Assembly (NCBI GenBank): GCA_029266775.1
Contig: JAQSWF010000016.1
Span: forward strand, 1-32,991
DNA length: 32,991 nt
DNA from: Pseudonocardia sp.
GTDB lineage: Bacteria; Actinomycetota; Actinomycetes; Mycobacteriales; Pseudonocardiaceae
Direction of reading: 5' to 3'
The notes under the pieces were generated by a model that did no database searches, had not been told where the DNA came from, and saw nothing but the letters and a program-made list of their open reading frames with translations. Of this stretch, positions 3 to 30,980 are shown piece by piece. The position numbers and the translations under genes were made by a program. Every line of letters starts with the position of its first letter. The first letter of the stretch is position 1.

Positions 3-59
3 GCGGCCGCGGCGCCGGTGCTGGTCGGCACATGCGGCTCCGCCGTGACGCGGGGCTGA
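3..59 (+). CDS. 3' end of an unidentified upstream gene (partial)
   Basis: An open frame enters from the left edge and stops at TGA 57-59, 21 bp before the next start. The 18 visible residues are alanine-rich and end in GSAVTRG. The tight spacing to the cell-wall fusion gene suggests the same transcript. Too little is visible to name a product, and the frame could be open by chance in such GC-rich DNA. Confidence 0.35.
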   Translation, partial: AAAAPVLVGTCGSAVTRG

Positions 60-80: not shown

Positions 81-3023
81 ATGCTGATCACCGGACCGAC
101 CACACCGCCACCCGCTCCGCGCCAGAGGCGACGGCGGACGTGGCAGCAGCGACGAAACCGCCGGGGCAGTGCCTTCGACCTGCTCGCCGTCGTGGCCGCA
201 CTGACGCTCGTCGGGCTCGGGCTGGCCAACCTGCATCTTACGGGGGCCGACGAGCTCGCGCTGCGGCAGGGCACGATCGCAGTCGGCGGTGTGCTGGCAC
301 TCGGGGCGTTCTGGCGGTTCCGCGTCCGGCTACTCGGGATCCTCGGCATCGCCGCGTACGGCACGAGCGTGCTGCTGCTCGCCGCCGTGCTCGTGACCGG
401 CATCTCGGCGAACGGGGCGACGCGGTGGATCGCGGTCGGTCCGGTCAGCTTCCAGCCGTCCGAACTCGCCAAGCTGGGGCTGCTGCTCGTCCTCGCCGGC
501 ATCCTGGGGTCGGGGCAGCCGGAGTGGCGACGCGCCACGCTGGCCGTCGTGGCCGCTGCCGTGCCGATCCTGCTCACCGTGGTCCAGCCCGATCTCAGCA
601 CGACGACGCTGCTGGCCGTCCTCGCCGGATCGATGCTCGTCATCGGGCGGGTGCCGCTCCGGTTCCTCATGCCCCTGGTTGCGGCCGCAGCCGTGTCGGC
701 ACCGCTGCTGATCGGCCTGCTGCGGCCCTACCAGGTCGAGCGCCTCGGCAGCTTCCTGGTCGGGGCGCACGAGGCCCCGACCGGCTCGGGTTGGGCGGTG
801 CGGCAGGCGCACATCGCGGTCGGGTCGGGCACCCTCTTCGGGAGCACCGACGACCCGATGCGGCTGCTGCGCGCGCAGTACCTGCCCGAGCGGGAGACAG
901 ACCTGGCACTCGCGAGCCTGGTCGGGCAGTGGGGTTTCGTCGCCGGGGCCGGTGCCGTGCTCGCTGGGCTGATCCTCGTCTGGCGGCTGGCGTTGGCCGC
1001 CCGCACGTCACGGACCCCGCACGGAGCCCTCGTCGGCGGCGGACTGGCAATCCTGATGGGCGTCGAGATCGTCGTGTCGGTGGGCGGCAACCTCGGGCTG
1101 CTCCCGCTGGCCGGCGTGCCGTTCCCGCTGCTCAGCTACGGTGGGACGGCCCTGGTGGTGCACCTGGCGGCGATCGGGGTCGTCCTCGCCGTGCGTCGCG
1201 ACGGCGGGCGCCGCCCGCTCTGGGCGTCGTCGCGGCGGCACAACCCGCGGCCCCGGCTCGTCCGCACGACCGCGATCGCGCTCTCGACGCTGCTGGTGGC
1301 GTTCGGGCTCTACGGCTGGCGGCTGCAGAGCACCGAGGGCCCGGCTCTGCGGCTCGCCGGCCAGGAGCAGATGACGCGCTGCGTCCGGCTGCCCGCCCCG
1401 CGGGGCGCGATGACGGACCGGCACGGCGCAGTGCTCGCTGCCAATGCCGCAGACGTCGGCAGAGGCGTGGACCGGGTCCTGGTCGTCCCGGCCATGCTGC
1501 GAAGCCGGCCCGCGGACGTCGACGTCCTCGCGGCGCTGACCGGGACGCCGCGCGCCGACCTCGACGCCGGAATCCGGGCCGCCGACCCCACGACGCTCGC
1601 GCTCCCGGTCGCCGACGTGCCGCGCGGCACCGCCGACGCGGTCGCCGCGGCCGGGATCCCCGGCGTGTTCGTCGTCCCGGAGGCCCGCCGGGCCTACCCG
1701 ACCGGCTCGTTGCTCGGCCCGGTGCTCGGCTTCGTCGGGGTGGCGACACCGGACGACGTGGAGCGCTGGCCGGATCTGCCCTCGGGTGAGGTCGTTGGGC
1801 GGGCCGGCCTCGAGCAGCAGTACGACGCCGTGCTGCGCGGCATCAACGGGCGGCAGTGCCTCTACGTCGACCCGCGGGGTGTGCCGGTGGCGCTCGGCGA
1901 GCGGCAGGATCCGGTCCCCGGCGCGGACCTGCGGCTCGCCCTCGACCTGGGCCTGCAGCGGCAGTTGGACGCGAGCCTGGCCACGGCCGTTCGGGCCCAG
2001 CCGAGGCCGGCGGGCCGGATCGGCGCCGCGGTGGCGATGGACCCGCGGTCGGGCCACGTCCTGGCGATCGCGAGCACGCCGTCGTTCGACAACTCCGTCT
2101 ACGGGCCGCCCGTCGACGTCCCCGCGCTGCGCGACGCGGCCGCCGCGCCGGGCGCGCCGATGCTCGAGCACGTCACGCAGGCGGTCGCTCCGCCCGGGTC
2201 GACGTTCAAGATCGTCGTCGCCGCGGCCAACCAGGCCCACCCGAGGTTCGCGCCGCAGCGGCCCATCCCGACGGGCGCCGACTTCACCTACGGCGGCCAC
2301 ACCTTCGGCAACTGGAAGCCGATGGGCCCGATGAACCTGCCGCAGTCCATCGCCATGTCCAACGACGTCTACTTCTACAAGCTGGCCGTCGCGCTCGGGG
2401 CGGACGCGATGATCGACACGGCGCGGGCGCTCGGGGTCGGGGAACGCACCGGCATCGACCTGCCGGGCGAGGCCGCCGGGTACCTCGGCACGCCGGAGTC
2501 GGTCGGCCGGGAGTGGTACGGCGGGTCGACGGTGATCCTCGGCATCGGCCAGGGGTACCTGCAGGTCACCCCGATCCAGAGCGCTCGATGGACAGGTGCG
2601 GTGGCCACCGGGAACCTGGTCACGCCGCGGCTCGGCCTGGCCGTCGGGACGGGAGACGGGCCGGACACCGCGCTCCCCGCGCCCGCCGCGACGCCCCTGC
2701 CCTTCGCCGACGCACTGGGGCCGGTGCGCGACGGGATGCGGGAGGCGGTGACCAGCGGCACGGCGGTGCGGCTCGCCGGCCTGCCCGCGGCGGTCGGCGC
2801 GAAGACGGGTACCGCCCAGGACGGCGGGCTTCCGGACGACGAGTACGACAACTGGATCACGGCCGCGGCCCCGTTCGACAACCCGGAGATCGTCATGACC
2901 GCGCTCGTCCAGGGGCCGGGCACGGGGGCGAACAACGCGAAGGACGTGGTGTCGGCCGGCCTGCGCCACTACCTGGACCACCGCGCGGACGTCGTGACGA
3001 CCGCACCGCTGCAGACGCCCTGA
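81..3023 (+). CDS. SEDS (RodA/FtsW)-class B PBP fusion, peptidoglycan polymerase/transpeptidase
   Basis: This 980-residue membrane protein joins both halves of a peptidoglycan synthase in one chain. Residues about 30-375 are a polytopic SEDS domain. It has the motif FPLLSYGGTALV near its end and an acidic residue, D274 in ETDLALASLVG, at the place of the SEDS catalytic aspartate. A further membrane segment at about 395-412 matches the single N-terminal anchor of a class B PBP. It is followed by the RGAMTDRHG motif of the PBP N-terminal region and a transpeptidase domain with all three active-site motifs: S707-T-F-K710, S760-N-D and K908-T-G. The ATG at 81 is preceded by GGGGGAG with good spacing. 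Known biology: SEDS proteins polymerise lipid II glycan strands and their partner PBPs crosslink them, normally as separate subunits. Whether this one acts in elongation or division is not shown; the facing mreB gene favours elongation. Confidence 0.95.
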   Translation: MLITGPTTPPPAPRQRRRRTWQQRRNRRGSAFDLLAVVAALTLVGLGLANLHLTGADELALRQGTIAVGGVLALGAFWRFRVRLLGILGIAAYGTSVLLLAAVLVTGISANGATRWIAVGPVSFQPSELAKLGLLLVLAGILGSGQPEWRRATLAVVAAAVPILLTVVQPDLSTTTLLAVLAGSMLVIGRVPLRFLMPLVAAAAVSAPLLIGLLRPYQVERLGSFLVGAHEAPTGSGWAVRQAHIAVGSGTLFGSTDDPMRLLRAQYLPERETDLALASLVGQWGFVAGAGAVLAGLILVWRLALAARTSRTPHGALVGGGLAILMGVEIVVSVGGNLGLLPLAGVPFPLLSYGGTALVVHLAAIGVVLAVRRDGGRRPLWASSRRHNPRPRLVRTTAIALSTLLVAFGLYGWRLQSTEGPALRLAGQEQMTRCVRLPAPRGAMTDRHGAVLAANAADVGRGVDRVLVVPAMLRSRPADVDVLAALTGTPRADLDAGIRAADPTTLALPVADVPRGTADAVAAAGIPGVFVVPEARRAYPTGSLLGPVLGFVGVATPDDVERWPDLPSGEVVGRAGLEQQYDAVLRGINGRQCLYVDPRGVPVALGERQDPVPGADLRLALDLGLQRQLDASLATAVRAQPRPAGRIGAAVAMDPRSGHVLAIASTPSFDNSVYGPPVDVPALRDAAAAPGAPMLEHVTQAVAPPGSTFKIVVAAANQAHPRFAPQRPIPTGADFTYGGHTFGNWKPMGPMNLPQSIAMSNDVYFYKLAVALGADAMIDTARALGVGERTGIDLPGEAAGYLGTPESVGREWYGGSTVILGIGQGYLQVTPIQSARWTGAVATGNLVTPRLGLAVGTGDGPDTALPAPAATPLPFADALGPVRDGMREAVTSGTAVRLAGLPAAVGAKTGTAQDGGLPDDEYDNWITAAAPFDNPEIVMTALVQGPGTGANNAKDVVSAGLRHYLDHRADVVTTAPLQTP

Positions 3024-3027
3024 GGCA

Positions 3028-4017
3028 TCAGCTCCTGCCGTACGCCGCGAGCAGCGGGCGGTTGCGCAGCGCACGCGCCGCGCCCTCGGCCACGCACGTC
3101 AGCGGTTCCTCGGCCAGCTTCACCGGCAGCCCGAGGCCGCGTTCCAGGTCCGTCGAGAACCCCCGGACCAGCGAGCCACCGCCGAACACGAGCACGCCCT
3201 CGCCGAGGACGTCCGTGACGGCCTGCGGGGGGAGCTCGTCCAGGCAGCCCGCGAGCGTCCGGATGATCTCGTCGGTGATCGGGCGCACCGCCTCGGCCAC
3301 CTCGGCCGCGCGGATCGTCACCAGCCGCGGGCGCCCCGTCGCGGCGTCCCGGCCCTGCACCACGATCGGTTCGTCGTCCGCCACGGCCGCACGGATCTTG
3401 AGGTCCTCGGCGCCGAGCTCGCCGACGTGCAGCTGGTGCCCCTCGCGCAGGAGTCGGTGCACCGCAAGCGTCATCTCGTCGCCGGCCAGCTTGCTGGAGC
3501 GGTGGGCGAGCACGCCGCCGAAGCAGAACGCCGACACCTCGGCGGTCCCGCCACCGACGTCGACGACCATGTGGACGCGGCGCTCCAGCGGGTCGATCCC
3601 GCAGCCCACCGCCCCGGCGATGGATTCGTCCAGCGCCGTCACCGGGCGGATGCCGGCCTCCTCGGCGGCCTCGACGAGCGCGCGGCGTTCGAGCGTGGTG
3701 GAGCCGACCGGCGCTCCGATGACGGCCCGAACCGGACCGGTCCACCCCCTCCGTCCCGCCGCCCGCAACACCCGGCGCAGGTAGAGCCGGGCGACCTCGA
3801 GGTCGACGACCACGCCGTCGTGCAGCGGCCGGACGGCGACGTAGTCCGCCGGGGCGCGACCGAGCAGCTCTGCCGCGTCCCTGCCCACTGCGAGCACCCG
3901 CTCCCGCCGGCTCCCGCGGCGGTGCAGCAGCATCACCGACGGCTCGTCCAGGACGATCCCCCGACGTGCCTCGCTGACCACGGTGTTGGCGGTGCCGAGA
4001 TCGATGCCCAGTTCCAC
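3028..4017 (-). CDS. mreB: MreB-like actin-fold cell-shape protein
   Basis: The 329-residue product is close in length to MreB. It shows the actin/Hsp70 nucleotide-binding motifs: phosphate-1 GIDLGTANT at residues 4-12, phosphate-2 VVDVGGGTAE at 151-160, and an adenosine motif FGGGSLVRGF near 283-292. MreB filaments position the elongation machinery (RodA, PBP2) at the inner membrane. The GTG at 4017 follows a GGGGGG ribosome site with 7-bp spacing. The gene converges with the SEDS-PBP fusion, leaving 4 bp between stop codons. No mreC or mreD is visible in the window. DnaK was considered, but the length and the absence of a substrate-binding domain rule it out. Confidence 0.9.
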   Translation of the reverse strand: MELGIDLGTANTVVSEARRGIVLDEPSVMLLHRRGSRRERVLAVGRDAAELLGRAPADYVAVRPLHDGVVVDLEVARLYLRRVLRAAGRRGWTGPVRAVIGAPVGSTTLERRALVEAAEEAGIRPVTALDESIAGAVGCGIDPLERRVHMVVDVGGGTAEVSAFCFGGVLAHRSSKLAGDEMTLAVHRLLREGHQLHVGELGAEDLKIRAAVADDEPIVVQGRDAATGRPRLVTIRAAEVAEAVRPITDEIIRTLAGCLDELPPQAVTDVLGEGVLVFGGGSLVRGFSTDLERGLGLPVKLAEEPLTCVAEGAARALRNRPLLAAYGRS

Positions 4018-4113: not shown

Positions 4114-4731
4114 TCACCCGCGCAGCCGGGCCGCCGCGTCGTCGAGGTCGACGACGTCGGCGTACTTCGCGTCGAGGTCGGCCAGATTGTTCTCGTGCAG
4201 GTCGGGGGAGCGGTCCGCGCATGCCTGCCGCACGACCTGAGGCCGGAAGCCGTGGTTCAGCGCGTCGGTCGCGGTGGCACGAATGCAGCCGGACGTCGAC
4301 ACGCCGCTCACGACGACGGTGTCGACGCGTGCGGTGTGCAGGGTGGCGGCCAGCGAGGTGCCGAAGAAGGCCGAAGCGTACTGCTTGGCGACGACCGGCT
4401 CGCCCGGCTTCGGGGCCAGTGGCGCGGCCATCTCGCCCCAACCGCCGGCGGCATCGTCGGCGAACACGGCCAGCGCGGGCACCTTCCGGACGAACAGCCC
4501 GCCGTCCGCGAGGCCCGCGGTGTACCGGACGACCGTCCAGACGACCGGCCGCCCGCCGGCGCGGGCCGCGTCCACGAGCGCGGCGGTCGCGGCCACGGCC
4601 GGGCCGGGATCGGGCAGGAGGAACGGCCCGCCTGGCTCGGTGTAGGCCCGCACGAGGTCGACGACGAGCAGGCCCGGACGGTCCCCCCAGCCCAGCCGGC
4701 TCGAGAACGCGGTGCCGTGCGGGCCGCTCAC
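4114..4731 (-). CDS. Isochorismatase-family cysteine hydrolase, N-carbamoylsarcosine amidohydrolase-like
   Basis: The 205-residue protein has the isochorismatase/cysteine hydrolase fold. Its probable catalytic triad is visible: D25 (LLVVDLVRAY), K116 (VVAKQYASAF) and C149 (VSGVSTSGC). The VSTSGCIRATATDA stretch is typical of the N-carbamoylsarcosine amidohydrolase branch, which releases sarcosine, CO2 and ammonia. The GTG start overlaps the hyuB stop by 4 bp (GTGA), so it is the last gene of the gntR-hyuA-hyuB operon. That position supports action on the carbamoyl product of hydantoin opening. A maleamate or other amide substrate cannot be excluded. Confidence 0.87.
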   Translation of the reverse strand: MSGPHGTAFSSRLGWGDRPGLLVVDLVRAYTEPGGPFLLPDPGPAVAATAALVDAARAGGRPVVWTVVRYTAGLADGGLFVRKVPALAVFADDAAGGWGEMAAPLAPKPGEPVVAKQYASAFFGTSLAATLHTARVDTVVVSGVSTSGCIRATATDALNHGFRPQVVRQACADRSPDLHENNLADLDAKYADVVDLDDAAARLRG

Positions 4732-6595
4732 GTCCAGGACGGCCGGGTCGGCGCCGGCAGCCCGGTCTCCTCCGCGCAGCGGGCCAGCAGCTCCTCGATC
4801 GGCGGGCCCATGTCGAACACGGGCAGCTCGGCCGGGCGGCCGGCCCGCATCTCGTTGCGAAGCGCCGCCGTCGCCGCCCCGTCGACCGCGCCGTCGACGA
4901 CCACCACCCCGTAGCGGCGCGCGCCCTCGGCCGTCACCAGCCCGCGCCGCACCTCCCGCGCCACGAGCTCCGGCTTGCGCTCGAGCGGGTCACCCCACCC
5001 GCCGCCACCCCAGGTGACGAAGTGCAGCACGTCGCCAGGGAAGACCTTGACGTCGTGACACTTCGACGGCAGCACCTGTCGGGTCCCGTCCCCACGCTCG
5101 ATCCATTTGCGGCCGCGCGCCCCGGGCGTCCCGCCGTTGACGCCCCCGGGTAGGTCAACCACCGGTCGTCGTGGATCGCGATCTCGCCGGGCTCCTCGAA
5201 CACGTACGCCACGTCCACGCCGTTCCCGCCGCGGTGCAGGCCGGCGCCGCCGGTGTCGGCGACGGTCTCCCACTTCTCGATCCGCAGCGGGTAGTACGAC
5301 TCGAGGTACTCGCAGGGGATGTTGACGAAGCTCGGCCACAGCGAGTGCCCGTCCGGCCCGTCGCCGAGCGGGCGGCCGGGGATGCCACCGAAGCCGATCG
5401 AGTACAGCTGGAACCACTCGCCGGCCCGGTCGCCGGAGGTGTAGTGCCCCGAGTACATGAAGTGCGGCGACGAGGAGAAGCCTGCCGCGTTGAGCAGCGC
5501 CGGGTTGGTCTGCCCGAGCAGCCCGCCGAACAGGTCGAACACCCGCCCGATGCCGTGGTTGCGCCCGTTGAGCGACGCCGGGTGCTTCGGCTTCCAATAC
5601 GAGCCCTCCGGGATCGTCACGTCGACCAACGGGTAGAAGCCGTCGTTCCACAGGATCTGCGGGTCGGCCACCGTGATCATGTAGATCCCGAAGAACATGC
5701 GTGCGAGGTTCTCGTTGAGGTAGTAGTTCACCGGTCCGACGGCCTGTGGCGACGATCCGGTGAAGTCGAGGTGCACGGTCGAGCCGGTGCGCGTCAGCGA
5801 CAGTTTCAGCTGGTAGGGGCCGTATCCGACGCCGTCGTCGCAGACGTAGTCGGTGAACGACAGCGTCTTTCCCTCCTCGAACACCAGCTCGAGCAGCACC
5901 TTCATCGCGTCGTAGTTGCGCTGGAGCAGAGCGTCCAGCGCGGCGAGGTAGGTGCCGGTACCGAACCGTTCGCACATCTCCACGACCCGCCGGCCGGCGG
6001 TGCGGCACGCCGCGACCAGGCCGTTGAGGTCCGCTCGGTTCCAGTCCGGCATCCGGACCTGGTTGAGCACGATGCGCAGGGCGTCGTCGTTGAGCCGCCC
6101 CTGCGCGTAGAGCTTGAAGGGCGGGATCACCACGCCCTCCTCGTAGATCGTGCGGGCGTCGGTCGGCATCGAGCAGGGCGTTTTCCCGCCGACGTCCGAC
6201 ATGTGCCCGAACATCGACGCCCAGCCCACGACCCGGCCCTCGTGAAAGATCGGCATGACGACCAGCCAGTCGTTGGCGTGGCTGATCGCGGCGCCGCAGG
6301 CGTACGGATCCGACGTGAGCAGGACGTCGCCCTCTTCGATCGTCCCGTCGAAGTTCTCGAGGAAGTCGGGGATCGAGAGCCCGAACTGGCCGACCACCAT
6401 CTTCCCGCTCGGGTCGCCGATCAGCGGGAACTCGTCGTGCTGCTCGCGGATACCGGGGGAGAGCGCGGTTCGGAACAGCACCTCGTCCATCTCGTAGCGG
6501 GCGTTGCGCAGCGCATTCTCGATGAGGTCGAGGGTGACGGGGTCGACGGGTGGCTTGTCGACGGTGCCGGCCGCGGTCTCGATGATCGTCGCCAT
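4728..6595 (-). pseudogene. hyuB: Hydantoinase B / N-methylhydantoinase B subunit, one-base frameshift
   Basis: The translation from ATG 6595 matches HyuB throughout (TLDLIENALRNARYEMDEV, SDPYACGAAISHANDW, SLNGRNHGIGRVFDL). At about residue 483 the C-terminal part continues in another frame (VNGGTPGARGRKWIERGDG up to the stop at 4728). One extra C in the C5 run at 5143-5147 would restore YPGGVNGG and a 622-residue protein of normal family length. Read as given, the 553-residue product ends in an unrelated tail. HyuB pairs with HyuA to open hydantoins or 5-oxoproline with ATP. The gene starts 1 bp after the hyuA stop and overlaps the next gene by 4 bp. The rest is well conserved, so a sequencing error or a very recent mutation is likely. 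Confidence 0.85.
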
Positions 6596-6596
6596 C

Positions 6597-8642
6597 TCAA
6601 GCCTCCACGGGTCGGATCAACAGGCTGCCGGACGCGTGCACCGTTGCCGCGTGGTCGGGCAGCACGAGAGTGGTCGAGTCCATCTCCGTGACGATCGCCG
6701 GCCCGACGATCACATCGCCCGCGCGCAGCGTGGCCCGGTCGTAGACCCGGGCGTCGACCGTGGCGCCCGAGAGATGGACGGGATGGGTGTCGACCGGTTC
6801 GGGCGGGCCCTCGGTGGGTGGCAACGTGACCGGTGCGACGGACGGGCGCGGCCCGGTGACGGTCGCGCGCGCGTTGACCAGCTCGTGGTCCTGGGTGAGG
6901 AGGAAGGAGAACAGCCGCTCGTGCTCGGCGTCGAACGCCGCCGTGAGCGCTGCGAGATCGAGCTTCTCGACGTCGATCGGGATCTCGAAGCCCTGGCCGT
7001 GGTAGCGGACGTCGACCTGGTAGGTCGCGATCTGGTCGGCCTCGGGCACGCCCTGGTCGGCCAGCCGGGCGCCGGCGTCGGCAGCGAGCTCGCCCAGGAT
7101 CTCGGCCAGGTCCGCGTTGGTCAGCTCGGCACTGTGACCCTTCCCGAAGGGGCGCAGCACGGTGCGCGCCGACTCGCTGCGCGCCGACGTCGTCGCGTCG
7201 CCCAACGCGCAGAGCACGCCCGGCGACGGCGGCACGATCACCGGCCAGGCGCCCGTCAGCTTGCCGAGCGCGTTCGCGTGCAGCGGCCCGGCCCCGCCGA
7301 ACGCGACCAGGGCGAAGTCGCGCGGGTCGAAGCCCTGCTGCACCGACACCAGGCGCAGCCCGCCGAGCATGTTCTCGTTGACGATGTCGACGATCCCCGC
7401 CGCTGCGGCCTCCGGAGACGGCAACCCCATCGCCTCGGCGACCTTCTCGACGGCCGTCCGCGCGGCACCGACGTCGAGGGTGATCTCGCCACCCGCCAGC
7501 GACGGCGGCAGGTAGCCGAGCACGACGTTCGCGTCCGTGACCGTCGGCTCGGTGCCGCCCCTGCCGTAGGCGGCGGGCCCGGGGTCGGCGCCCGCGGACT
7601 GCGGGCCCACGCGCAGCGCCCTGGTCAGCTGGGGGACGTGCGCGATCGAGCCGCCGCCGGCGCCGACCGTCCGGACATCCACACTGGACGCGCGCACCGT
7701 CAGGTCGCCGACTTTCGTCTCCCGCCCGATCCGCGGCGTGAGCCCCTGGACGAGCGCGACATCTGTGGAGGTGCCCCCCATGTCGAAGGTGATGAGGTCG
7801 GAGAACCCGCACTGCTCGGCGACCCACACCGCGCCTGTGACGCCACCGGCCGGGCCGGACAGCAGCATCGTCACCGGTGCGGCGACGGCGGCCTCCGCGG
7901 CGGACAGCCCGCCGTCGCTGCGCAGGATCGCCAGTTCGCCGGCCACTCCGTCCGCGCGCAGGCGCCCGGACAGCGCCTCCACGTACCCCTTGACGTGCGG
8001 CTGCACGTAGCCGTTCGCCACCGTGGTGACGGTTCGCTCGTACTCGCGCAGCTCGGGCAGCACGTCACTGGACAGCGACACGGGCACGCCGGGCAGCACC
8101 TCCGCGGCGATCGCGGCGACGCGCCGCTCGTGGGTGGGGTCCGCGAAGGAGTTGATGAGCGAGACCGCCAGTGCGTCGATCCCCGACAGCGTGTTGAGCT
8201 GGGTGCGGACGTCGGCCTCGTCCAGCTTCCGGATAAGCATGCCGTCCGAGGCGATGCGCTCGTCGATCTCGACGGTGTTCTCCAGCGCGGCGAGCGGCTC
8301 CGGCTTCGGCCAGATGATCCAGCCGGCGAGCCCACCCGGCACGTAGGAGCGGGCGATCTGCAGCACCTGCCGGAAGCCCTTGGTGGTGACGAGCCCGACG
8401 GTGGCGCCCTTCCCCTCGAGGATCGCGTTGGTGGCGACCGTCGTGCCGTGCAGCACCTGCGCGACGTCCGACAGGGCGATGCCCGCCTCCTCGCACACCC
8501 GGGCGACACCGGTGCGTACCCCGACGGCCTGGTCCGTCGGGGTCGACGCGGTCTTCGCCCGCCAGGTGCGCCCGCTGACCTCCTCGACGAGGAGCACGTC
8601 GGTGAAGGTCCCGCCGACGTCGACCCCGAGCCGGTAGCTCAT
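6597..8642 (-). CDS. hyuA: Hydantoinase A / N-methylhydantoinase A, ATP-binding subunit
   Basis: The 681-residue protein starts MSYRLGVDVGGTFTDVLL, the typical HyuA N-terminus with an actin-like phosphate loop. A second nucleotide motif, DMGGTSTDVAL, comes mid-protein, with LLSGPAGGVTG just before it. Length and motif order fit hydantoinase A/5-oxoprolinase N-terminal subunits, which activate the ring with ATP while HyuB supplies the rest of the active site. An in-frame ATG 31 codons upstream exists, but I chose the start at 8642. It gives the family N-terminus and overlaps the gntR stop by 4 bp (ATGA). With the downstream amidase, the substrate is probably N-methylhydantoin or a related hydantoin; acetophenone carboxylase or oxoprolinase activity is possible. 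Confidence 0.93.
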   Translation of the reverse strand: MSYRLGVDVGGTFTDVLLVEEVSGRTWRAKTASTPTDQAVGVRTGVARVCEEAGIALSDVAQVLHGTTVATNAILEGKGATVGLVTTKGFRQVLQIARSYVPGGLAGWIIWPKPEPLAALENTVEIDERIASDGMLIRKLDEADVRTQLNTLSGIDALAVSLINSFADPTHERRVAAIAAEVLPGVPVSLSSDVLPELREYERTVTTVANGYVQPHVKGYVEALSGRLRADGVAGELAILRSDGGLSAAEAAVAAPVTMLLSGPAGGVTGAVWVAEQCGFSDLITFDMGGTSTDVALVQGLTPRIGRETKVGDLTVRASSVDVRTVGAGGGSIAHVPQLTRALRVGPQSAGADPGPAAYGRGGTEPTVTDANVVLGYLPPSLAGGEITLDVGAARTAVEKVAEAMGLPSPEAAAAGIVDIVNENMLGGLRLVSVQQGFDPRDFALVAFGGAGPLHANALGKLTGAWPVIVPPSPGVLCALGDATTSARSESARTVLRPFGKGHSAELTNADLAEILGELAADAGARLADQGVPEADQIATYQVDVRYHGQGFEIPIDVEKLDLAALTAAFDAEHERLFSFLLTQDHELVNARATVTGPRPSVAPVTLPPTEGPPEPVDTHPVHLSGATVDARVYDRATLRAGDVIVGPAIVTEMDSTTLVLPDHAATVHASGSLLIRPVEA

Positions 8643-9316
8643 GCCTGGGTCCCTTCTGCAGTGGTGCAACGGGCCGCCCGCACCATCACGGCCCGGGCGT
8701 TGTGGATGTGTGCCGTCATCACGGCCGCCGCCCACGCGGGGTCGCGGGCCCGCACGGCAGCAGCGATCTCGACGTGGTGGGCCAGGCTGCGCGCCAGCGA
8801 CGCATCGTCGTAGGTGTGGAAGTTGCGCAGCACGATGGGGGCGTGCACCGCGCCGGCGAGCGCGGCCGCGGTGGCCGGCCGGTCCGCGAGCGCGACCAGG
8901 AGGCCGTGGAACGCGCGGTTGAGAGGAACGAGCGCGTCGAGATCACGGCCCGGCCCCGGCGCTCCCGTGCGCTGCATCGCGAGGGCCAGCCGCTCCAGCT
9001 CTGCGGCGTCGTCGGCCGTCGAGTGCGGCACCGCCAGCGCGGTGAGCTTGGGCTCGAGCGTGGCGCGCAGGTCGAACACCTCCTCGAGCTGGGCCACCGT
9101 CCAGCTGGTGACGCGCGCACCTCGGTTCGGCACGATCTCGACGAGGCCCTCGGCGGCCAGCCGACCCAGTGCCTCGCGCACGGGGGTGCGGCTCACCCCG
9201 AGCCGGTCGGCCAACTCCGTTTCGCCGAGCCGGGCACCGGGGGAGAGCTCGCCTCGCAGGATCAGCTCCCGCACCGTGCTCAGCGTCCGCCCTGCCGACG
9301 TCACGGCCTGCGTCAC
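8639..9316 (-). CDS. GntR-family (FCD type) transcriptional regulator of the hyu operon
   Basis: The 225-residue protein has an N-terminal winged helix (about 15-72, with LADRLGVSRTPVREALGRLA) and an all-helical FCD ligand domain, as in FadR-type GntR proteins. The GTG at 9316 follows GGGGAGG with 5-bp spacing. It is the first gene of the hyu operon and divergent from the PEP mutase-like gene. Two TTGTRTGCA-type sites lie in the 110-bp gap, so it probably controls both directions. The ligand is unknown; a pathway intermediate is the simple guess. Confidence 0.92.
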   Translation of the reverse strand: MTQAVTSAGRTLSTVRELILRGELSPGARLGETELADRLGVSRTPVREALGRLAAEGLVEIVPNRGARVTSWTVAQLEEVFDLRATLEPKLTALAVPHSTADDAAELERLALAMQRTGAPGPGRDLDALVPLNRAFHGLLVALADRPATAAALAGAVHAPIVLRNFHTYDDASLARSLAHHVEIAAAVRARDPAWAAAVMTAHIHNARAVMVRAARCTTAEGTQA

Positions 9317-23585: not shown

Positions 23586-23630
23586 TTGACAGCGCGTAAA
23601 GTACGCATACGCTTGACAGCGTGTCAAGCG
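23586..23630. promoter_or_regulatory. Divergent tetR/glycosyltransferase promoters with TetR operator
   Basis: A perfect 9-bp inverted repeat, CGCTTGACA (23610-23618) and TGTCAAGCG (23622-23630), covers the tetR GTG. Toward tetR, TTGACA 23586-23591 and TACGCT 23608-23613 are 16 bp apart, placing the start point on the GTG (leaderless). Toward the glycosyltransferase, TTGACA (complement of 23622-23627) and TACTTT (complement of 23598-23603) are 18 bp apart. A second CTTGACAGCG half-site lies at 23585-23594. Bound TetR would cover the -35 of one promoter and the start of the other. Confidence 0.65.
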
Positions 23631-24217
23631 GTGGGCGTCCCCAGACCCGCGCCCAGATCCTCGAGGCGGCGCGGGCGATGTTCGAGGAGCACGGCTATCA
23701 CGGCGCAGGCCTCGAGGCCGTCGCGAGGAAGGCCGGGGTCTCGCGCCAGGCGATCTACCTCCACTTCCCGTCCAAGGCCGAGCTGCTGGCCGCCCTCCAC
23801 ATGCAGATCTTCGCCATTGACGTCGTGCCCGCCATCGAGCGTCATCCGATCACCGACTCGACGTCTGCACTGGACGCACTCGACGCGACGATCGCCGTGG
23901 ACACCGAAGTGGTCTCCACGGTGTGGCGCATCAGCGAGGTCCTCGCCGTGGCCCGACGACAACATCCGGAAGTCGAGCAGACCCTCAAACCGCGCGACGA
24001 CGAGCGCTACGGCGAACTGCTCAACCTCGGGCACCGGCTCGAGAAGGAGGGCGAGCTGCCGCCCACGATCGGTGTGGCCCTGTTCGCGGACATGCTGTGG
24101 GGCCTCATGAACACCGGCACCTACAGGAACCTCGTCATCGAACGAGGGTGGTCGCTCGATGAGTACAGGCAGTGGGTGCGCGACACGATCCGACTCCACC
24201 TCGAAGTGGGGTGCTGA
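23621..24217 (+). CDS. TetR/AcrR-family transcriptional regulator
   Basis: The 198-residue protein has a canonical TetR DNA-binding domain at about 8-55 (ILEAARAMFEEHGYHGAGLE, then VARKAGVSRQAIYLHFPSK) and a helical C-terminal ligand domain. Its GTG lies inside a perfect inverted repeat, which implies autorepression. The divergent glycosyltransferase is the obvious target, and a natural antibiotic or other glycosylated small molecule the likely ligand, though this is inference. Confidence 0.94.
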   Translation: MSSGGRPQTRAQILEAARAMFEEHGYHGAGLEAVARKAGVSRQAIYLHFPSKAELLAALHMQIFAIDVVPAIERHPITDSTSALDALDATIAVDTEVVSTVWRISEVLAVARRQHPEVEQTLKPRDDERYGELLNLGHRLEKEGELPPTIGVALFADMLWGLMNTGTYRNLVIERGWSLDEYRQWVRDTIRLHLEVGC

Positions 24218-24274
24218 CGCGACGCACCGGGGGTGCCGGTCGCCGCGCGGTGCGGCGCTGCCAGGCTGGCCACC

Positions 24275-24709
24275 ATGAGCATCTCGCTGGAGCAGGCCCG
24301 CGTCGTCGTCGATGCCGCACTCGCCCACGGCATCGAGCAGGGGTTCAACCCGCTGACCGTCGCCGTCCTCGACCCCGGCGGCGCGCTCGTCGCGCTCGCC
24401 CGGCAGGACGGCTCCGGCAACCTCCGGCCGGAGCTCGCCGTGGCCAAGGCCTACGGGGTGCTGGCGCTCGGCATGACGAACCGGGCCATCGCCGCCCGGG
24501 CCGCCGATTCGCCGGAGTTCTTCACGTCGGTCGCCGCGCTCGCCGGCGGCCGGATCCTCTCCGTACCGGGCGGGGTCTTCGTCCGCGACGCCGAGGGGGT
24601 GCTGCTCGGAGCCGTCGGCGTCACCGGGGACACGTCGCTGCACGACGAGGCCGCCGCCGTCGCGGGGATCACCGCGGCCGGCCTCGTGTCGGTCACCGGA
24701 GCCGAGTGA
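24275..24709 (+). CDS. GlcG/HbpS-family (DUF336) heme-binding-like protein
   Basis: The 144-residue protein shows the GlcG/HbpS pattern: ISLEQARVVVDAALAHGIEQ, VAVLDPGGALVALARQDGSG, an AVAKAYGVLALGM helix and GGVFVRDAEGVLLGAVGVTG. Relatives bind heme or cobalamin, or accompany glycolate and diol metabolism. The start MSISLEQ at 24275 fits the family; GTG or ATG codons upstream give atypical extensions. It is monocistronic, 57 bp after tetR, and its role here is not defined. Confidence 0.9.
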   Translation: MSISLEQARVVVDAALAHGIEQGFNPLTVAVLDPGGALVALARQDGSGNLRPELAVAKAYGVLALGMTNRAIAARAADSPEFFTSVAALAGGRILSVPGGVFVRDAEGVLLGAVGVTGDTSLHDEAAAVAGITAAGLVSVTGAE

Positions 24710-24787
24710 CGGCGGTCCCAGAGGGCGGCCCTGGCGAAATATCCGCTGCTCACGGGGTGTTCTAGCCTCTGTAGAAAGGATCTCGTC

Positions 24788-25150
24788 GTGCCCTCGTCGG
24801 ACCGCGCCGTCCTCATCACCGATGCCCCCGAGTCGCCCGCGCAGCAGCGCGCAGACCGCACCCGCCGCTACTCGCTCCTGATGGGCGGACGCCTCGTCCT
24901 GTTCGTGCTCGCCGGGTTGGCCTACCCGCTCTCGTCCTGGCTGGCCGTGGCGCTCCTGGCGCTGTCGATCCCGCTGCCGTGGATGGCCGTGCTCATCGCC
25001 AACGACGCCCCGCCCCGCAGCCGCCGTCGCACGGCCGACTCGCACCGGCTGCCCCCGCCCGCCCCATCGCGCGCGCTCGAGGCGCGCAGCCACGTCGTCG
25101 TCGACGCAGATCCGGTCGTTCCCGGCGGGCTCAGCCGGCGGACCGGCTGA
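24788..25150 (+). CDS. DUF3099-family small membrane protein
   Basis: The 120-residue protein has the actinobacterial DUF3099 pattern: an N-terminal LITDAPESPAQQRADRTRRY, two membrane helices (LVLFVLAGLAYPLSSWLAVA and LLALSIPLPWMAVLIAND) and a basic proline-rich tail. The GTG at 24788 follows AAAGGA. The function is unknown. The 3' end overlaps the end of the opposing decarboxylase gene by 20 bp. Confidence 0.88.
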   Translation: MPSSDRAVLITDAPESPAQQRADRTRRYSLLMGGRLVLFVLAGLAYPLSSWLAVALLALSIPLPWMAVLIANDAPPRSRRRTADSHRLPPPAPSRALEARSHVVVDADPVVPGGLSRRTG

Positions 25151-28103: not shown

Positions 28104-28987
28104 CCGTCGTCGGGTACGCCCCGCACACGGGCGGGCGTGGCGCGCTCGACCTCGGGCTGGCCCTGGCCCACGCGCGTGACGAGGCGATGGCGGTGGTCAC
28201 CGTCGTCCCACGCCAGTGGACGACCCCGTCCCTCGCCAGGATCGACGCGGAGTACGCCGAGTACGCGCGGCAGGTCGGCGAGTACGCCGAGCAGCAGGCA
28301 CGCGGCTACCTCACCGACACGAGCGTCGACGTCCCCACGGCCTTCCGCGCTACCACGGGCCGGTCGGTGCCGTCCGCGTTGATCGCCGCGTTGGACGAGC
28401 TCGACGCCGGCATGCTGGTCGTCGGGTCGTCGGTGGAGAGCCAGGTCGGCCGGATCGTGGCCGGCTCCACGGCGGAGAAGCTGTTGCACTCCTGCCCGGT
28501 CCAGCTGGCCATCAGCCCGCGCGAGTACCGGTCTGTCGCCGCCGCGGGCTTCACCCGCATCACGTGCGCGTTCTCCGACAGCTCGGCGACGGGGATGGTG
28601 GGCGAGGCTGCGGCGCTGGCCGCGCGGTTGGGCGCGGGCCTGCGGGTCGCGAGCTTCGGCGTGCGGGGCGCCACGATGTACCCGCCCGAGGTCGGGCTGT
28701 CCGCGGAGGACTCGGTGCTGGACTCGTGGGTGAAGCAGGCCGAGGCGGCGCAGCAGCGGCTGGTCGCGGAAGGGGTCGTCGGCCCGGAGGTGCAGTGCGT
28801 GGTCGCCACCGGCAGCGGGTGGGGCGAGGCCCTGTCCGCCGTCGAGTGGCGCACCGGGGAGCTGCTGGTGCTGGGATCGTCGCCGTCCGGCGCGCTGGCC
28901 CGGGTGTTCCTCGGCTCGCGGGCGCGCAAGCTGATCCGCTACTCGCCGGTGCCGGTGATCGTCCTGCCCGGATATCCGGACGTGTGA
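28100..28987 (+). CDS. Two-domain universal stress protein (UspA family)
   Basis: The 295-residue protein holds two UspA domains. The first starts TVVGYAPHTGGRGALDLGLA and has the ATP-binding pattern VVGSSVESQVGRIVAGSTAEKLLH. The second has LVLGSSPSGALARVFLGSRA and RKLIRYSPVPVIVLP. GTG 28100 overlaps the permease stop (GTGA). In many APC transporters a Usp domain is fused to the C-terminus; here it is a separate, translationally coupled gene, consistent with nucleotide-dependent control of the permease. Confidence 0.92.
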   Translation: MTVVGYAPHTGGRGALDLGLALAHARDEAMAVVTVVPRQWTTPSLARIDAEYAEYARQVGEYAEQQARGYLTDTSVDVPTAFRATTGRSVPSALIAALDELDAGMLVVGSSVESQVGRIVAGSTAEKLLHSCPVQLAISPREYRSVAAAGFTRITCAFSDSSATGMVGEAAALAARLGAGLRVASFGVRGATMYPPEVGLSAEDSVLDSWVKQAEAAQQRLVAEGVVGPEVQCVVATGSGWGEALSAVEWRTGELLVLGSSPSGALARVFLGSRARKLIRYSPVPVIVLPGYPDV

Positions 28988-29751
28988 CGACAGCGGTGAC
29001 GACCGACGACGAGGGCCGCTCCGTCTCGATACCGGGCCCGGTCCGGCGCGTCGTCAGCCTCGTCCCGTCGCTCACCGAGACGGTCGCGGCCACCGCGCCG
29101 GGCCTGCTCGTCGGCGCGACGGACTGGTGCACGCATCCGCCCGGCCTCGCCGTGCGGCGGGTGCGCGGGACGAAGAACCCGGACGTGGCCGCGGTGGTCG
29201 CGCTCGCCCCGGACCTGGTGCTCGCGAATGCCGAGGAGAACCGACGCGCCGACCTCGACGCCCTGCGCGCCGCCGGCGTCGCGGTCTACGTGACCGACAT
29301 CCGCACTCTGCCGGACGCGTTCGGCTCGCTGGCCCGCATGCTTGCCGCCTGCGGCCTCGAGCGGCCGGACTGGCTCTCGGCGGCTGACATCGCATGGGCG
29401 TCGGTGCCGGTCGCGACGCCGCGACGGCGGGCCGTCGTCCCGATCTGGCGTCGGCCGTGGATGGCGGTCGGGCGCGACACGTTCACCGGCGCGGTGCTCG
29501 CCCGCCTCGGTGTGGACAACGTGCTCGCCGATCACACGGAGCGCTACCCCCGGATCGACCCGGGCGCGCTTCCGCCGCACGACCTGGTCGTTCTGCCCGA
29601 TGAGCCCTACGCCTTCGCCGCCGACGACGGCCCGGAGGCCTTCGTCGCACCGTCGGTGCTGGTGTCCGGACGGCTCCTCACCTGGTACGGACCGAGCCTG
29701 GGCGAGGCGGCGCATGTGCTGCCCGCGCTGCTGGGTCGGCGGCGGGAATGA
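28984..29751 (+). CDS. Helical-backbone metal receptor (BtuF-like), without signal peptide
   Basis: The 255-residue protein resembles cobalamin/siderophore binding proteins (BtuF/FhuD fold): RRVVSLVPSLTETVAATAPG, TKNPDVAAVVALAPDLVLAN and a C-terminal PHDLVVLPDEPYAF. It starts at GTG 28984 (GTGA overlap with the stress gene) and has no signal peptide or lipobox, so it is probably cytosolic. No ABC permease or ATPase is adjacent. Such stand-alone members are annotated as helical backbone metal receptors; their task is unclear. Confidence 0.87.
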   Translation: MTTAVTTDDEGRSVSIPGPVRRVVSLVPSLTETVAATAPGLLVGATDWCTHPPGLAVRRVRGTKNPDVAAVVALAPDLVLANAEENRRADLDALRAAGVAVYVTDIRTLPDAFGSLARMLAACGLERPDWLSAADIAWASVPVATPRRRAVVPIWRRPWMAVGRDTFTGAVLARLGVDNVLADHTERYPRIDPGALPPHDLVVLPDEPYAFAADDGPEAFVAPSVLVSGRLLTWYGPSLGEAAHVLPALLGRRRE

Positions 29752-30980
29752 TGGACTCCGTGCCGGAAGATCGGGAGTACGACGTCGCCGTCTACGGCGC
29801 GACAGGTTTCGTCGGAGCGCTCGTGGCCGCCCACCTCGCCGAGCACGCGCCGCCGGGAACCCGCATCGCCCTGGCCGGACGGTCGCGAGACCGGCTGACC
29901 GCCCTCCGGGACGGGCTGCCGGGCGGGCCGGACTGGCCGCTGGTGCAGGCCGACGCCGAGGATCCCGCATCCCTCGCCGCGCTTGCCCGCGCGGCCCGGG
30001 TGGTCGCCACGACCGTCGGGCCCTACGCCCGCCACGGCTTGCCGCTGGTCGAAGCCTGCGCGCAGGCCGGAACGCACTACGCCGACCTGACCGGCGAGGT
30101 GCTGTTCGTCCGGCGGGCGATCGACCGCGTCGACGCCGTGGCGCGGGACAGCGGCGCGCGGATCGTGCACGCCTGCGGCTACGACTCGATCCCCTCCGAC
30201 CTCTCGGTGTACCTGCTGCACGAGCGCGCTGCGGCCGACGGGGCGGGTGGGCTGCGGGATGTGCAGCTGGTCGCCACGGCCCGCGGCAGCTTCAGCGGCG
30301 GGACCGTCGACTCGATGCGCGGCGTGATCGACGAGGTTCGGCGCGATCCCGCGGCCCGCCGGCTGGCGGCCGACCCGTTCGCGCTCAGCCCGGACCGGGC
30401 GGCCGAGCCGGACACGCCGCAGCCGGGCAGGACCAGCATTGTCCGGGCGGAAGACGGCACGTGGCTCGCCCCCTTCGTCATGGCGTCCTACAACACCCGC
30501 ATCGTGCGGCGCAGCAACGCGCTGCTGAGCTGGGCGTACGGGCGCGACCTGCGCTACACCGAGGTGATGGGGTGCGGCCGGGGCGTTGTCGGGGCGGCGA
30601 CGGCGGTCGCGACGACCGTCGGCCTGCCCGCGTTCCTGGCCGCGATGAGCGTCGCGCCCACCCGGGCCGTGCTGGACCGGGTCCTGCCCGCCCCGGGCAC
30701 CGGCCCGAGCCCTGAGGCCAGGGCGCGGGGGTGGTTCCGGATGGCCGTGCACGCGGAGACCGAGGACGGACGCCGCTACCGCGCGGACGTGCACGGCACC
30801 GGTGATCCCGGCTACGCCGCGACCGCCATCATGCTGGGGCAGAGCGCGCTGGCCCTGGCGTTGGACGAGGAGCGCCTTCCCGCTCGCGCCGGCTCACTGA
30901 CGCCGGCCACGGCCCTGGGCGACGTGCTGGTGGAGCGCCTGCGCCGCGCGGGCCACGCGTACGACGTCGGCCCGGCTTAG
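29748..30980 (+). CDS. Saccharopine dehydrogenase-like / trans-acting enoyl reductase-family protein
   Basis: The 410-residue protein has an N-terminal Rossmann motif VAVYGATGFVGALVAAHLAEH, TTVGPYARHGLPLVEACAQAGTHYADLTGE and the CGYDSIPSDLSVYLLH segment. These features match the saccharopine dehydrogenase NADP-binding family that includes mycobacterial trans-acting enoyl reductases for lipid synthesis. The ATG overlaps the preceding stop (ATGA); the second M (29751) is an alternative. It is the last gene of the four-gene overlapped set. Its substrate is unknown and no polyketide synthase is nearby. Confidence 0.9.
   Translation: MMDSVPEDREYDVAVYGATGFVGALVAAHLAEHAPPGTRIALAGRSRDRLTALRDGLPGGPDWPLVQADAEDPASLAALARAARVVATTVGPYARHGLPLVEACAQAGTHYADLTGEVLFVRRAIDRVDAVARDSGARIVHACGYDSIPSDLSVYLLHERAAADGAGGLRDVQLVATARGSFSGGTVDSMRGVIDEVRRDPAARRLAADPFALSPDRAAEPDTPQPGRTSIVRAEDGTWLAPFVMASYNTRIVRRSNALLSWAYGRDLRYTEVMGCGRGVVGAATAVATTVGLPAFLAAMSVAPTRAVLDRVLPAPGTGPSPEARARGWFRMAVHAETEDGRRYRADVHGTGDPGYAATAIMLGQSALALALDEERLPARAGSLTPATALGDVLVERLRRAGHAYDVGPA

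What the first reader, a model, noticed from the sequence alone, without database searches (positions are those of the whole stretch)
81..4017. One-chain SEDS-PBP cell-wall synthase facing mreB
The sequence shows a complete SEDS domain fused to a complete class B PBP with all active-site motifs, and an MreB gene 4 bp away in the facing direction. SEDS and PBP partners are normally separate proteins. Natural fusions are known to me but uncommon. Together with mreB, and without mreC/mreD nearby, this may be a reduced elongation module in a group where many members grow without MreB.
Basis: partly seen in the sequence, partly recalled or inferred. Interest (0 to 1): 0.68.

Follow-up and report, generated by a model that had tools for sequence, protein, structure and literature searches.

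The report
Three-gene wall-building module with bacterial actin
A single-protein cell-wall synthase sits with a bacterial actin and an uncharacterised membrane protein as a compact three-gene set in scattered actinobacteria, which looks like a natural stripped-down version of the machine that shapes rod-like bacteria.

Summary
Window 81-3023 (+) encodes an intact 980-aa SEDS-class B PBP fusion and 3028-4017 (-) an intact MreB, tail to tail, 4 bp apart. The linkage is not chance: in a draw of 200 same-family genomes the same 15 carry both and the rest carry neither; within the own genus both are present or both absent. MreC and MreD are absent from all 15.

Forty-seven non-redundant loci in four actinobacterial families and uncultured bacteria show the set; mreB faces, follows or precedes the fusion, yet stays near. 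The window's copy branches with Geodermatophilaceae: transfer as a unit, or a chimeric contig end.

FtsW and RodA are also present, so this is an accessory system. Most likely it is a natural minimal elongasome in which X stands in for MreCD/RodZ. Natural fusions are known; I found no report of the three-gene set.

The parts
3..59 (+). 3' end (last 18 codons and stop) of gene X, the bitopic third partner; the rest lies beyond the contig end
   Evidence: frame 3-56 aligns with the C-terminus of X proteins; where X could be read it is upstream of the fusion on the same strand in 42 of 44 loci. Inferred from 18 residues and position; the X profile does not score it.
81..3023 (+). one-chain SEDS-class B PBP fusion, 980 aa
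240..1199 (+). SEDS (RodA/FtsW-like) polymerase domain; conserved Asp274 codon at 900-902
   Evidence: PF01098 residues 54-373; Asp in the same column of 28 of 28 canonical rows
1194..1265 (+). joint between the SEDS C-tail and the PBP N-tail (RRDGxRRxLW...PRLVR), predicted cytosolic, strongly conserved
   Evidence: motif table (45 of 49 begin RRDG); in E. coli the RodA C-tail and the PBP2 N-tail both touch MreB (PMC13327600, abstract and passages)
1389..1889 (+). PBP dimerisation (pedestal) domain
   Evidence: PF03717 residues 437-603
2022..2942 (+). transpeptidase domain; SxxK codons 2199-2210, KTG lysine 2802-2804
   Evidence: PF00905 residues 648-954
3028..4017 (-). MreB, 329 aa, GTG start, tail to tail with the fusion
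   Evidence: PF06723 284 bits; gate Glu kept in the window's copy (LDESIAGAVG)

Best explanation
A three-gene morphogenetic module, X - SEDS.PBP - MreB, that works like a minimal elongasome. The SEDS half polymerises lipid II and the tethered class B PBP half crosslinks the new glycan (shown only as conserved domains and catalytic residues). MreB filaments on the membrane orient this synthase, probably through the conserved cytosolic joint of the fusion and through X (inferred). X is a one-pass protein: a kinase-C-lobe-like, catalytically dead inner domain in most copies, one long membrane helix, and an outer Ig-like domain; I infer that it does the job of MreC/MreD/RodZ, contacting MreB inside and the PBP pedestal outside. 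Because the two enzymes are one chain, MreC/MreD may not be needed to assemble them (inferred). The module is accessory: the host keeps FtsW and RodA. A role in non-polar wall synthesis during development, spore or coccoid/budding growth would fit some of its hosts, but is not tested.
For: Strict co-occurrence: of 200 genomes 15 have both, the rest neither; in genus g1, 4 of the 11 listed have both and 7 neither. Nearness kept through rearrangement: of 47 non-redundant loci mreB is downstream facing in 37, downstream same strand in 4, upstream same strand in 4, not found in 2 (one contig edge, one about 7 kb away and split); X is upstream same strand in 42, downstream in 2, unread in 3 that end at a contig edge. 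In L072/L073 X sits beyond mreB, so there X is tied to the set and not to the fusion's operon. Trees agree: distance correlation fusion-X 0.95, fusion-MreB 0.76, MreB-X 0.80 over 43 loci, Mantel 0.001 each (shared ancestry of the hosts contributes); SEDS, PBP and MreB are each monophyletic against canonical sets (support 0.90, 1.0, 1.0). MreC 0 of 15, MreD 0 of 15. X model pLDDT 80.8; kinase hits by structure and by profile, 56 of 60 listed rows. Natural decay: three Rhodococcus plasmids carry the fusion, but no record of the plasmid collection holds a triad-type MreB (best listed 40% identity), and X is in pieces (L029) or not next to the fusion (L028, L030). Precedents: an engineered RodA-PBP2 fusion largely restores rod shape in E. 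coli (PMC6207328, passages); MreB plus activated RodA-PBP2 mutants form a minimal elongasome without MreCD/RodZ (PMC13327600, abstract and passages).
Against: No expression, localisation or interaction data. The fusion persists without MreB on three plasmids, so MreB is not strictly required. The MreB gate Glu is replaced in 14 of 45 copies, so some may not hydrolyse ATP normally. X shows no match to MreC or RodZ (8 proteins); its kinase resemblance is moderate (Z 10.3; best profile E 0.0053), and in 7 of 44 X copies the profile match begins past the inner domain (L056-L059, L061, L062, L065). X was looked for only in fetched neighbourhoods, so its occurrence without the fusion is unknown. The fusion search over the order failed twice, so fusions without MreB outside this family may be under-counted; the genome search scores only a few candidates per genome (4 for the fusion).
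Confidence: 0.62

Rival explanations
1. The fusion is a self-sufficient spare wall synthase (stress or beta-lactam tolerant); mreB and X are neighbours kept by shared transfer, not partners.
For: Rhodococcus plasmids carry the fusion with no triad-type MreB in the plasmid collection, two of them among copper or metal-related genes and one near arsenic genes.
Against: Nearness is kept while mreB changes side and strand; 15 of 15 co-occurrence in the family; X is broken or missing where MreB is gone.
Confidence: 0.15
2. The module is a developmental wall synthase like the Streptomyces Mre system, used for spore or thick-wall formation and not for elongation; biochemistry as in the best explanation.
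For: Streptomyces MreB organises spore-wall synthesis (PMC4255298, passages); the genome keeps genes taken as FtsW and RodA; strains of Geodermatophilaceae in one study showed coccoid cells and budding, and MreB was annotated in all genomes there (PMC9686282, one passage).
Against: No expression data; Rhodococcus hosts are not known to me as spore formers.
Confidence: 0.45
3. In many triads MreB is a slow or non-hydrolysing actin that serves as a static membrane scaffold for the fusion.
For: Gate Glu replaced by A, G, D, N or Q in 14 of 45 copies; P2 and adenosine loops also drift in Actinomycetospora-type and some Pseudonocardia copies. The residue's role is recalled.
Against: 31 of 45, the window's included, keep the Glu, and the P1 loop is recognisable in all.
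Confidence: 0.25
4. The window's triad is foreign to this genome by mis-binning or a chimeric contig end, not by gene transfer.
For: Fusion and MreB branch with Geodermatophilaceae; window plus Pseudonocardia as one clade is rejected (p-AU 2.8e-5 and 5.2e-4); the triad sits at the very end of a MAG contig.
Confidence: 0.2

Closest known systems
Canonical Rod complex (MreB, MreC, MreD, RodA, PBP2, RodZ)
   Same: MreB plus a SEDS/class B PBP pair; best NCBIfam models are pbp2_mrdA and rodA_shape
   Different: SEDS and PBP are one chain; no MreC or MreD in 15 of 15 genomes; a bitopic protein X without a Pfam family is present
Natural SEDS-PBP single ORF (PMC10449877 cites the Rhodococcus sp. RHA1 genome)
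   Same: single ORF encoding SEDS and PBP; one sentence in PMC10449877 (passages), whose reference 18 is the RHA1 genome paper (that paper itself not read)
   Different: no module with MreB and X is described in the passages read
Engineered minimal elongasome of E. coli (MreB + activated RodA-PBP2; PMC13327600)
   Same: MreB and the synthase partly suffice when MreCD and RodZ are absent
   Different: there it needs activating mutations; here it is a natural gene set with an extra partner
Streptomyces Mre cluster (SCO2607-2611)
   Same: actinobacterial MreB-linked wall synthesis (PMC4255298, passages)
   Different: separate genes (composition recalled); the window's MreB is 40% identical to the MreB of a Streptomyces plasmid
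RodZ / MreC
   Same: X has their general topology (theirs recalled): inside part, one membrane helix, outer beta domain
   Different: no Pfam match in 8 X proteins; the inside domain looks like a kinase C-lobe, not a helix-turn-helix
MviN/FhaA pseudokinase control of peptidoglycan in mycobacteria
   Same: a dead kinase fold next to wall synthesis (PMC3989709, one passage)
   Different: X is bitopic, has at most a C-lobe, and lies beside a SEDS-PBP fusion

Membership tests
SEDS glycosyltransferases | PF01098 domain over cut-off and conserved catalytic Asp | tested here: met
   206 bits against a cut-off of 26.4; Asp274 invariant in 17 of 17, same column in 28 of 28 canonical rows
Class B PBPs | PBP_dimer plus transpeptidase domain, SxxK, SxN/SxD, KTG | tested here: met
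   S707, K710, S760, K908, G910 invariant in 17 of 17
RodA / PBP2 equivalogs | score over NCBIfam equivalog cut-off | tested here: not met
   rodA_shape 229.8 against 336.7, pbp2_mrdA 356.2 against 455; filed as a divergent fusion subfamily
MreB | PF06723 over cut-off | tested here: met
   284 bits against 27; the NCBIfam MreB models stay under their own cut-offs (285.7 against 293; 269.3 against 365.75)
Canonical Rod complex | MreC present | tested here: not met
   0 of 15 triad genomes; 8 of 14 control genomes positive
Canonical Rod complex | MreD present | tested here: not met
   0 of 15; 5 of 14 controls positive
Canonical Rod complex | RodZ present | not tested
   no genome search for a RodZ family was made
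Canonical Rod complex | MreB directs the synthase in the cell | not testable with these tools
   needs microscopy
MreC or RodZ (for X) | sequence match to the family | tested here: not met
   8 of the X proteins, Pfam at E up to 1: no MreC or RodZ hit
Protein-kinase fold (for X, inner part) | C-lobe fold and kinase profile similarity | tested here: inconclusive
   VIA Z 10.3 to 6m7z and 8.5 to 6b2p (within the range that helical folds can reach by chance); 56 of 60 listed profile hits are Ser/Thr kinases, best E 0.0053; HRD and DFG motifs not seen in alignment A5

The most novel reading that the evidence does not exclude
X-SEDS.PBP-MreB is a self-contained, horizontally mobile elongasome in which a kinase-derived bitopic protein replaces MreC, MreD and RodZ, coupling bacterial actin inside the cell to a one-chain wall synthase outside; it gives polar-growing actinobacteria a second, non-polar mode of wall growth.
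Probability: 0.35. Interest if true: 0.82.

Novelty: new variant of a known kind. Interest (0 to 1): 0.7.

Why it matters
How much of the Rod complex is needed to make actin-guided wall growth is an open question; the minimal set that I found in print uses mutant E. coli enzymes (PMC13327600). A natural three-gene set, one chain for both enzymes, could be moved into a laboratory host and tested directly. In the family sampled here every MreB found belongs to this set (15 of 15), in a group whose studied relatives grow at the poles; and an uncharacterised protein family becomes a candidate link between actin and wall synthase.

Tried and rejected
Artefact of assembly or frameshift: rejected, the single-chain fusion recurs in the loci. 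Ordinary mre cluster with lost mreC/mreD: rejected, MreB, SEDS and PBP are each monophyletic and on long stems (about 1 change per column) away from the canonical rows. Only a two-gene pair: rejected by X. Gene neighbours further out: comparison of neighbour ORFs over 18 loci (window, 14 genome regions, 3 plasmids) showed no other gene shared by more than about five loci. Window contig as plain Geodermatophilaceae contaminant: not favoured, a chimeric end remains possible.

Second AlphaFold model (X of L072) had pLDDT 57.4 and was not searched. Pfam found nothing convincing for X (GvpG E 0.0044 and two others are below cut-off and taken as noise). Foldseek's own best hits for X (AlkC, Spo0M, E about 2e-4 to 4e-4) have query TM about 0.2 and cover only a common beta sandwich or helical pieces. 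No MreC or RodZ structure was in the rows shown, which excludes nothing. Row L062 in alignment A3 was out of frame; it was dropped from the profile and corrected in A4. A weak X hit on L028, 10 kb from the fusion, was taken as chance. Paper searches for a prior description: (PubMed Central open-licence papers only): none described the three-gene set in what I saw (listings, starts of abstracts and passages); the RHA1 genome paper was not read.
Full report
Observation. The ORFs are as stated: fusion 81-3023 (+, 980 aa) and MreB 3028-4017 (-, 329 aa), stops 4 bp apart. Pfam finds SEDS, PBP_dimer and transpeptidase in the first and MreB in the second, all above cut-off. NCBIfam puts the halves nearest to PBP2 and RodA, but under the equivalog cut-offs. 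The window is the whole of contig C46 of a 3.42-Mb, 318-contig genome, 88.5% complete.

The rest of the genome. It has three SEDS genes: one on C308, a few kb from a PBP gene and taken as ftsW/ftsI; one on C155, taken as rodA, with the first residues of a transpeptidase domain at the contig end; and the fusion. It has one clear MreB; three further hits (70, 34 and 33 bits) were not identified and are taken as other actin/Hsp70-fold proteins or fragments. No MreC and no MreD were found. So the fusion is a third SEDS-PBP system, not the only one.

Linkage. In 200 genomes of the same family MreB was found in 15 (E up to 1e-20) and the fusion in 15 (E up to 1e-60): the same 15 handles. They fall in 6 of 46 genera; within genus g1, 4 of the 11 listed have both and 7 neither. 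In 14 of the 15 the two genes are within about 1 kb of each other; in G169 they are about 9 kb apart. These genomes share ancestry, so the 15 are not independent events; the mixed state within g1 shows at least some joint gains or losses. In 397 genomes of the order MreB was found in 72: 22 at E up to 1e-100 (the window's genome and G113 among them) and 50 weaker ones, mostly 35-43% identical. Of the 20 new strong loci, 19 have the fusion in the 1.5-kb flank; the exception has mreB split into two frames. Of 8 weak loci looked at, none does.

Third gene. Comparison of 14 fetched regions plus the window and three plasmids showed a conserved gene directly upstream of the fusion. X proteins have one clear hydrophobic helix; several show a second, weaker peak inside the outer domain, which the model makes a strand. 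That the N-terminal part is inside is inferred from the Arg-rich stretch before the helix. Four cysteines and a tryptophan of the outer domain are invariant in 16 of 16 rows of A4. In the window only the last 18 codons remain (3-56, stop 57-59), so X's presence there is an inference. The remaining 63 loci are distant; no single ORF with both domains was found among those tested.

Arrangement. X is upstream on the same strand in 42, downstream in 2 (L072, L073) and unread in 3 (window, L054, L064: contig edges). Within genus code g4 one locus has mreB facing (L049) and three have it on the same strand (L051, L053, L054), so mreB was turned round in place. These loci were found through either MreB or the fusion, and X was sought only beside them; only the family survey tests MreB and fusion independently.

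Trees. SEDS, PBP and MreB of the triads are each monophyletic against 28, 64 and 43 canonical rows. Fusion, X and MreB distances agree over 43 loci, to which shared host ancestry contributes. I read this as transfer of the triad as a unit; a chimeric contig end is not excluded. That genus code g1 is Pseudonocardia is inferred from the tree.

X structure. AlphaFold2 on 16 sequences: pLDDT 80.8, pTM 0.47. Residues 46-196 are helices with a short hairpin, 219-261 one long helix, 287-386 a beta sandwich. The X of L066 and L072 show kinase-like words (LHxxGxVH...G.VRL.PG). VIA-align ranked a kinase lacking the glycine loop first (6m7z, Z 10.3, rmsd 3.4, 121 aligned) and a mycobacterial kinase lower (6b2p, PknB; Z 8.5, rmsd 3.1, 117 aligned); the tool warns that helical folds can reach such Z by chance. 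A profile of 13 X proteins against PDB sequences listed 56 Ser/Thr kinases among 60 rows (many of them PAK4 constructs), best E 0.0053, over the catalytic-loop region. Catalytic HRD and DFG residues are not seen in the alignment. I take a dead kinase C-lobe as likely, not proven. In 7 of 44 X copies (L056-L059, L061, L062, L065) the match begins past this domain. Six of these seven have an MreB without the gate glutamate, and their MreBs group on long branches: what one would expect if X's inner domain works on MreB, but few lineages are involved and long branches may attract each other.

Natural decay. Three Rhodococcus plasmid records carry the fusion (46-48% identity), two among copper or metal-related genes and one near arsenic genes. 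No record of the plasmid collection shows a triad-type MreB (best listed 40%). X is in pieces on one (L029) and not found next to the fusion on two. The rest of those genomes was not searched. The fusion can therefore outlive MreB, and X seems to go when MreB goes, as expected if X links the two.

MreB. The P1 loop is recognisable in all 45; the gate glutamate is replaced in 14 of 45 and kept in the window's. The residue's role is recalled.

Literature. Single SEDS-PBP ORFs are mentioned in PMC10449877 with the RHA1 genome as reference. A linked RodA-PBP2 works in E. coli (PMC6207328, passages). MreB with activated RodA-PBP2 is a minimal elongasome, and MreB touches the RodA C-tail and the PBP2 N-tail (PMC13327600, abstract and passages); in the fusion these two tails become the conserved joint. 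By 2012 all actinobacteria studied grew at the poles, and mycobacterial and corynebacterial genomes lacked MreB (PMC3296230, passages); [quoted passage not shown] MreB was annotated in all Geodermatophilaceae genomes of one study (PMC9686282, one passage). Nine searches (listed under Tried and rejected) showed no description of the three-gene set.

Verdict. A real, conserved, probably transferable module; a new variant of the elongasome kind, with an uncharacterised partner family. Function is inferred.

Noticed in passing
L028, L029, L030 (Rhodococcus plasmids): SEDS-PBP fusions without MreB on large plasmids, two among copper or metal-related genes and one near arsenic genes; X broken or not beside them. 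Perhaps a metal-tolerant spare wall synthase.
   Followed up: partly
L056-L060, L062, L065, L076, L173, L175, L176, L179-L181: MreB copies in which the gate glutamate is replaced by A, G, D, N or Q (14 of 45); possible non-hydrolysing actins.
   Followed up: partly
L063 and L183 (Blastococcus sp. TF02-09): mreB is split into two reading frames and lies about 7 kb from the fusion: decay or sequencing error.
   Followed up: no
L072, L073 (uncultured bacteria): Most divergent triads; X lies beyond mreB and has a longer N-terminal part; its model was too poor to search.
   Followed up: partly
window 4117-9316: Isochorismatase, hydantoinase B and a GntR/FCD regulator, with a further long ORF 6597-8735 between them that was not scanned; looks like an ordinary catabolic operon.
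   Followed up: no
window 23627-25093 and 28942-29970 (-): ORFs of 489 and 343 codons without a Pfam match at E up to 0.001; the second overlaps another ORF and may not be a gene.
   Followed up: no
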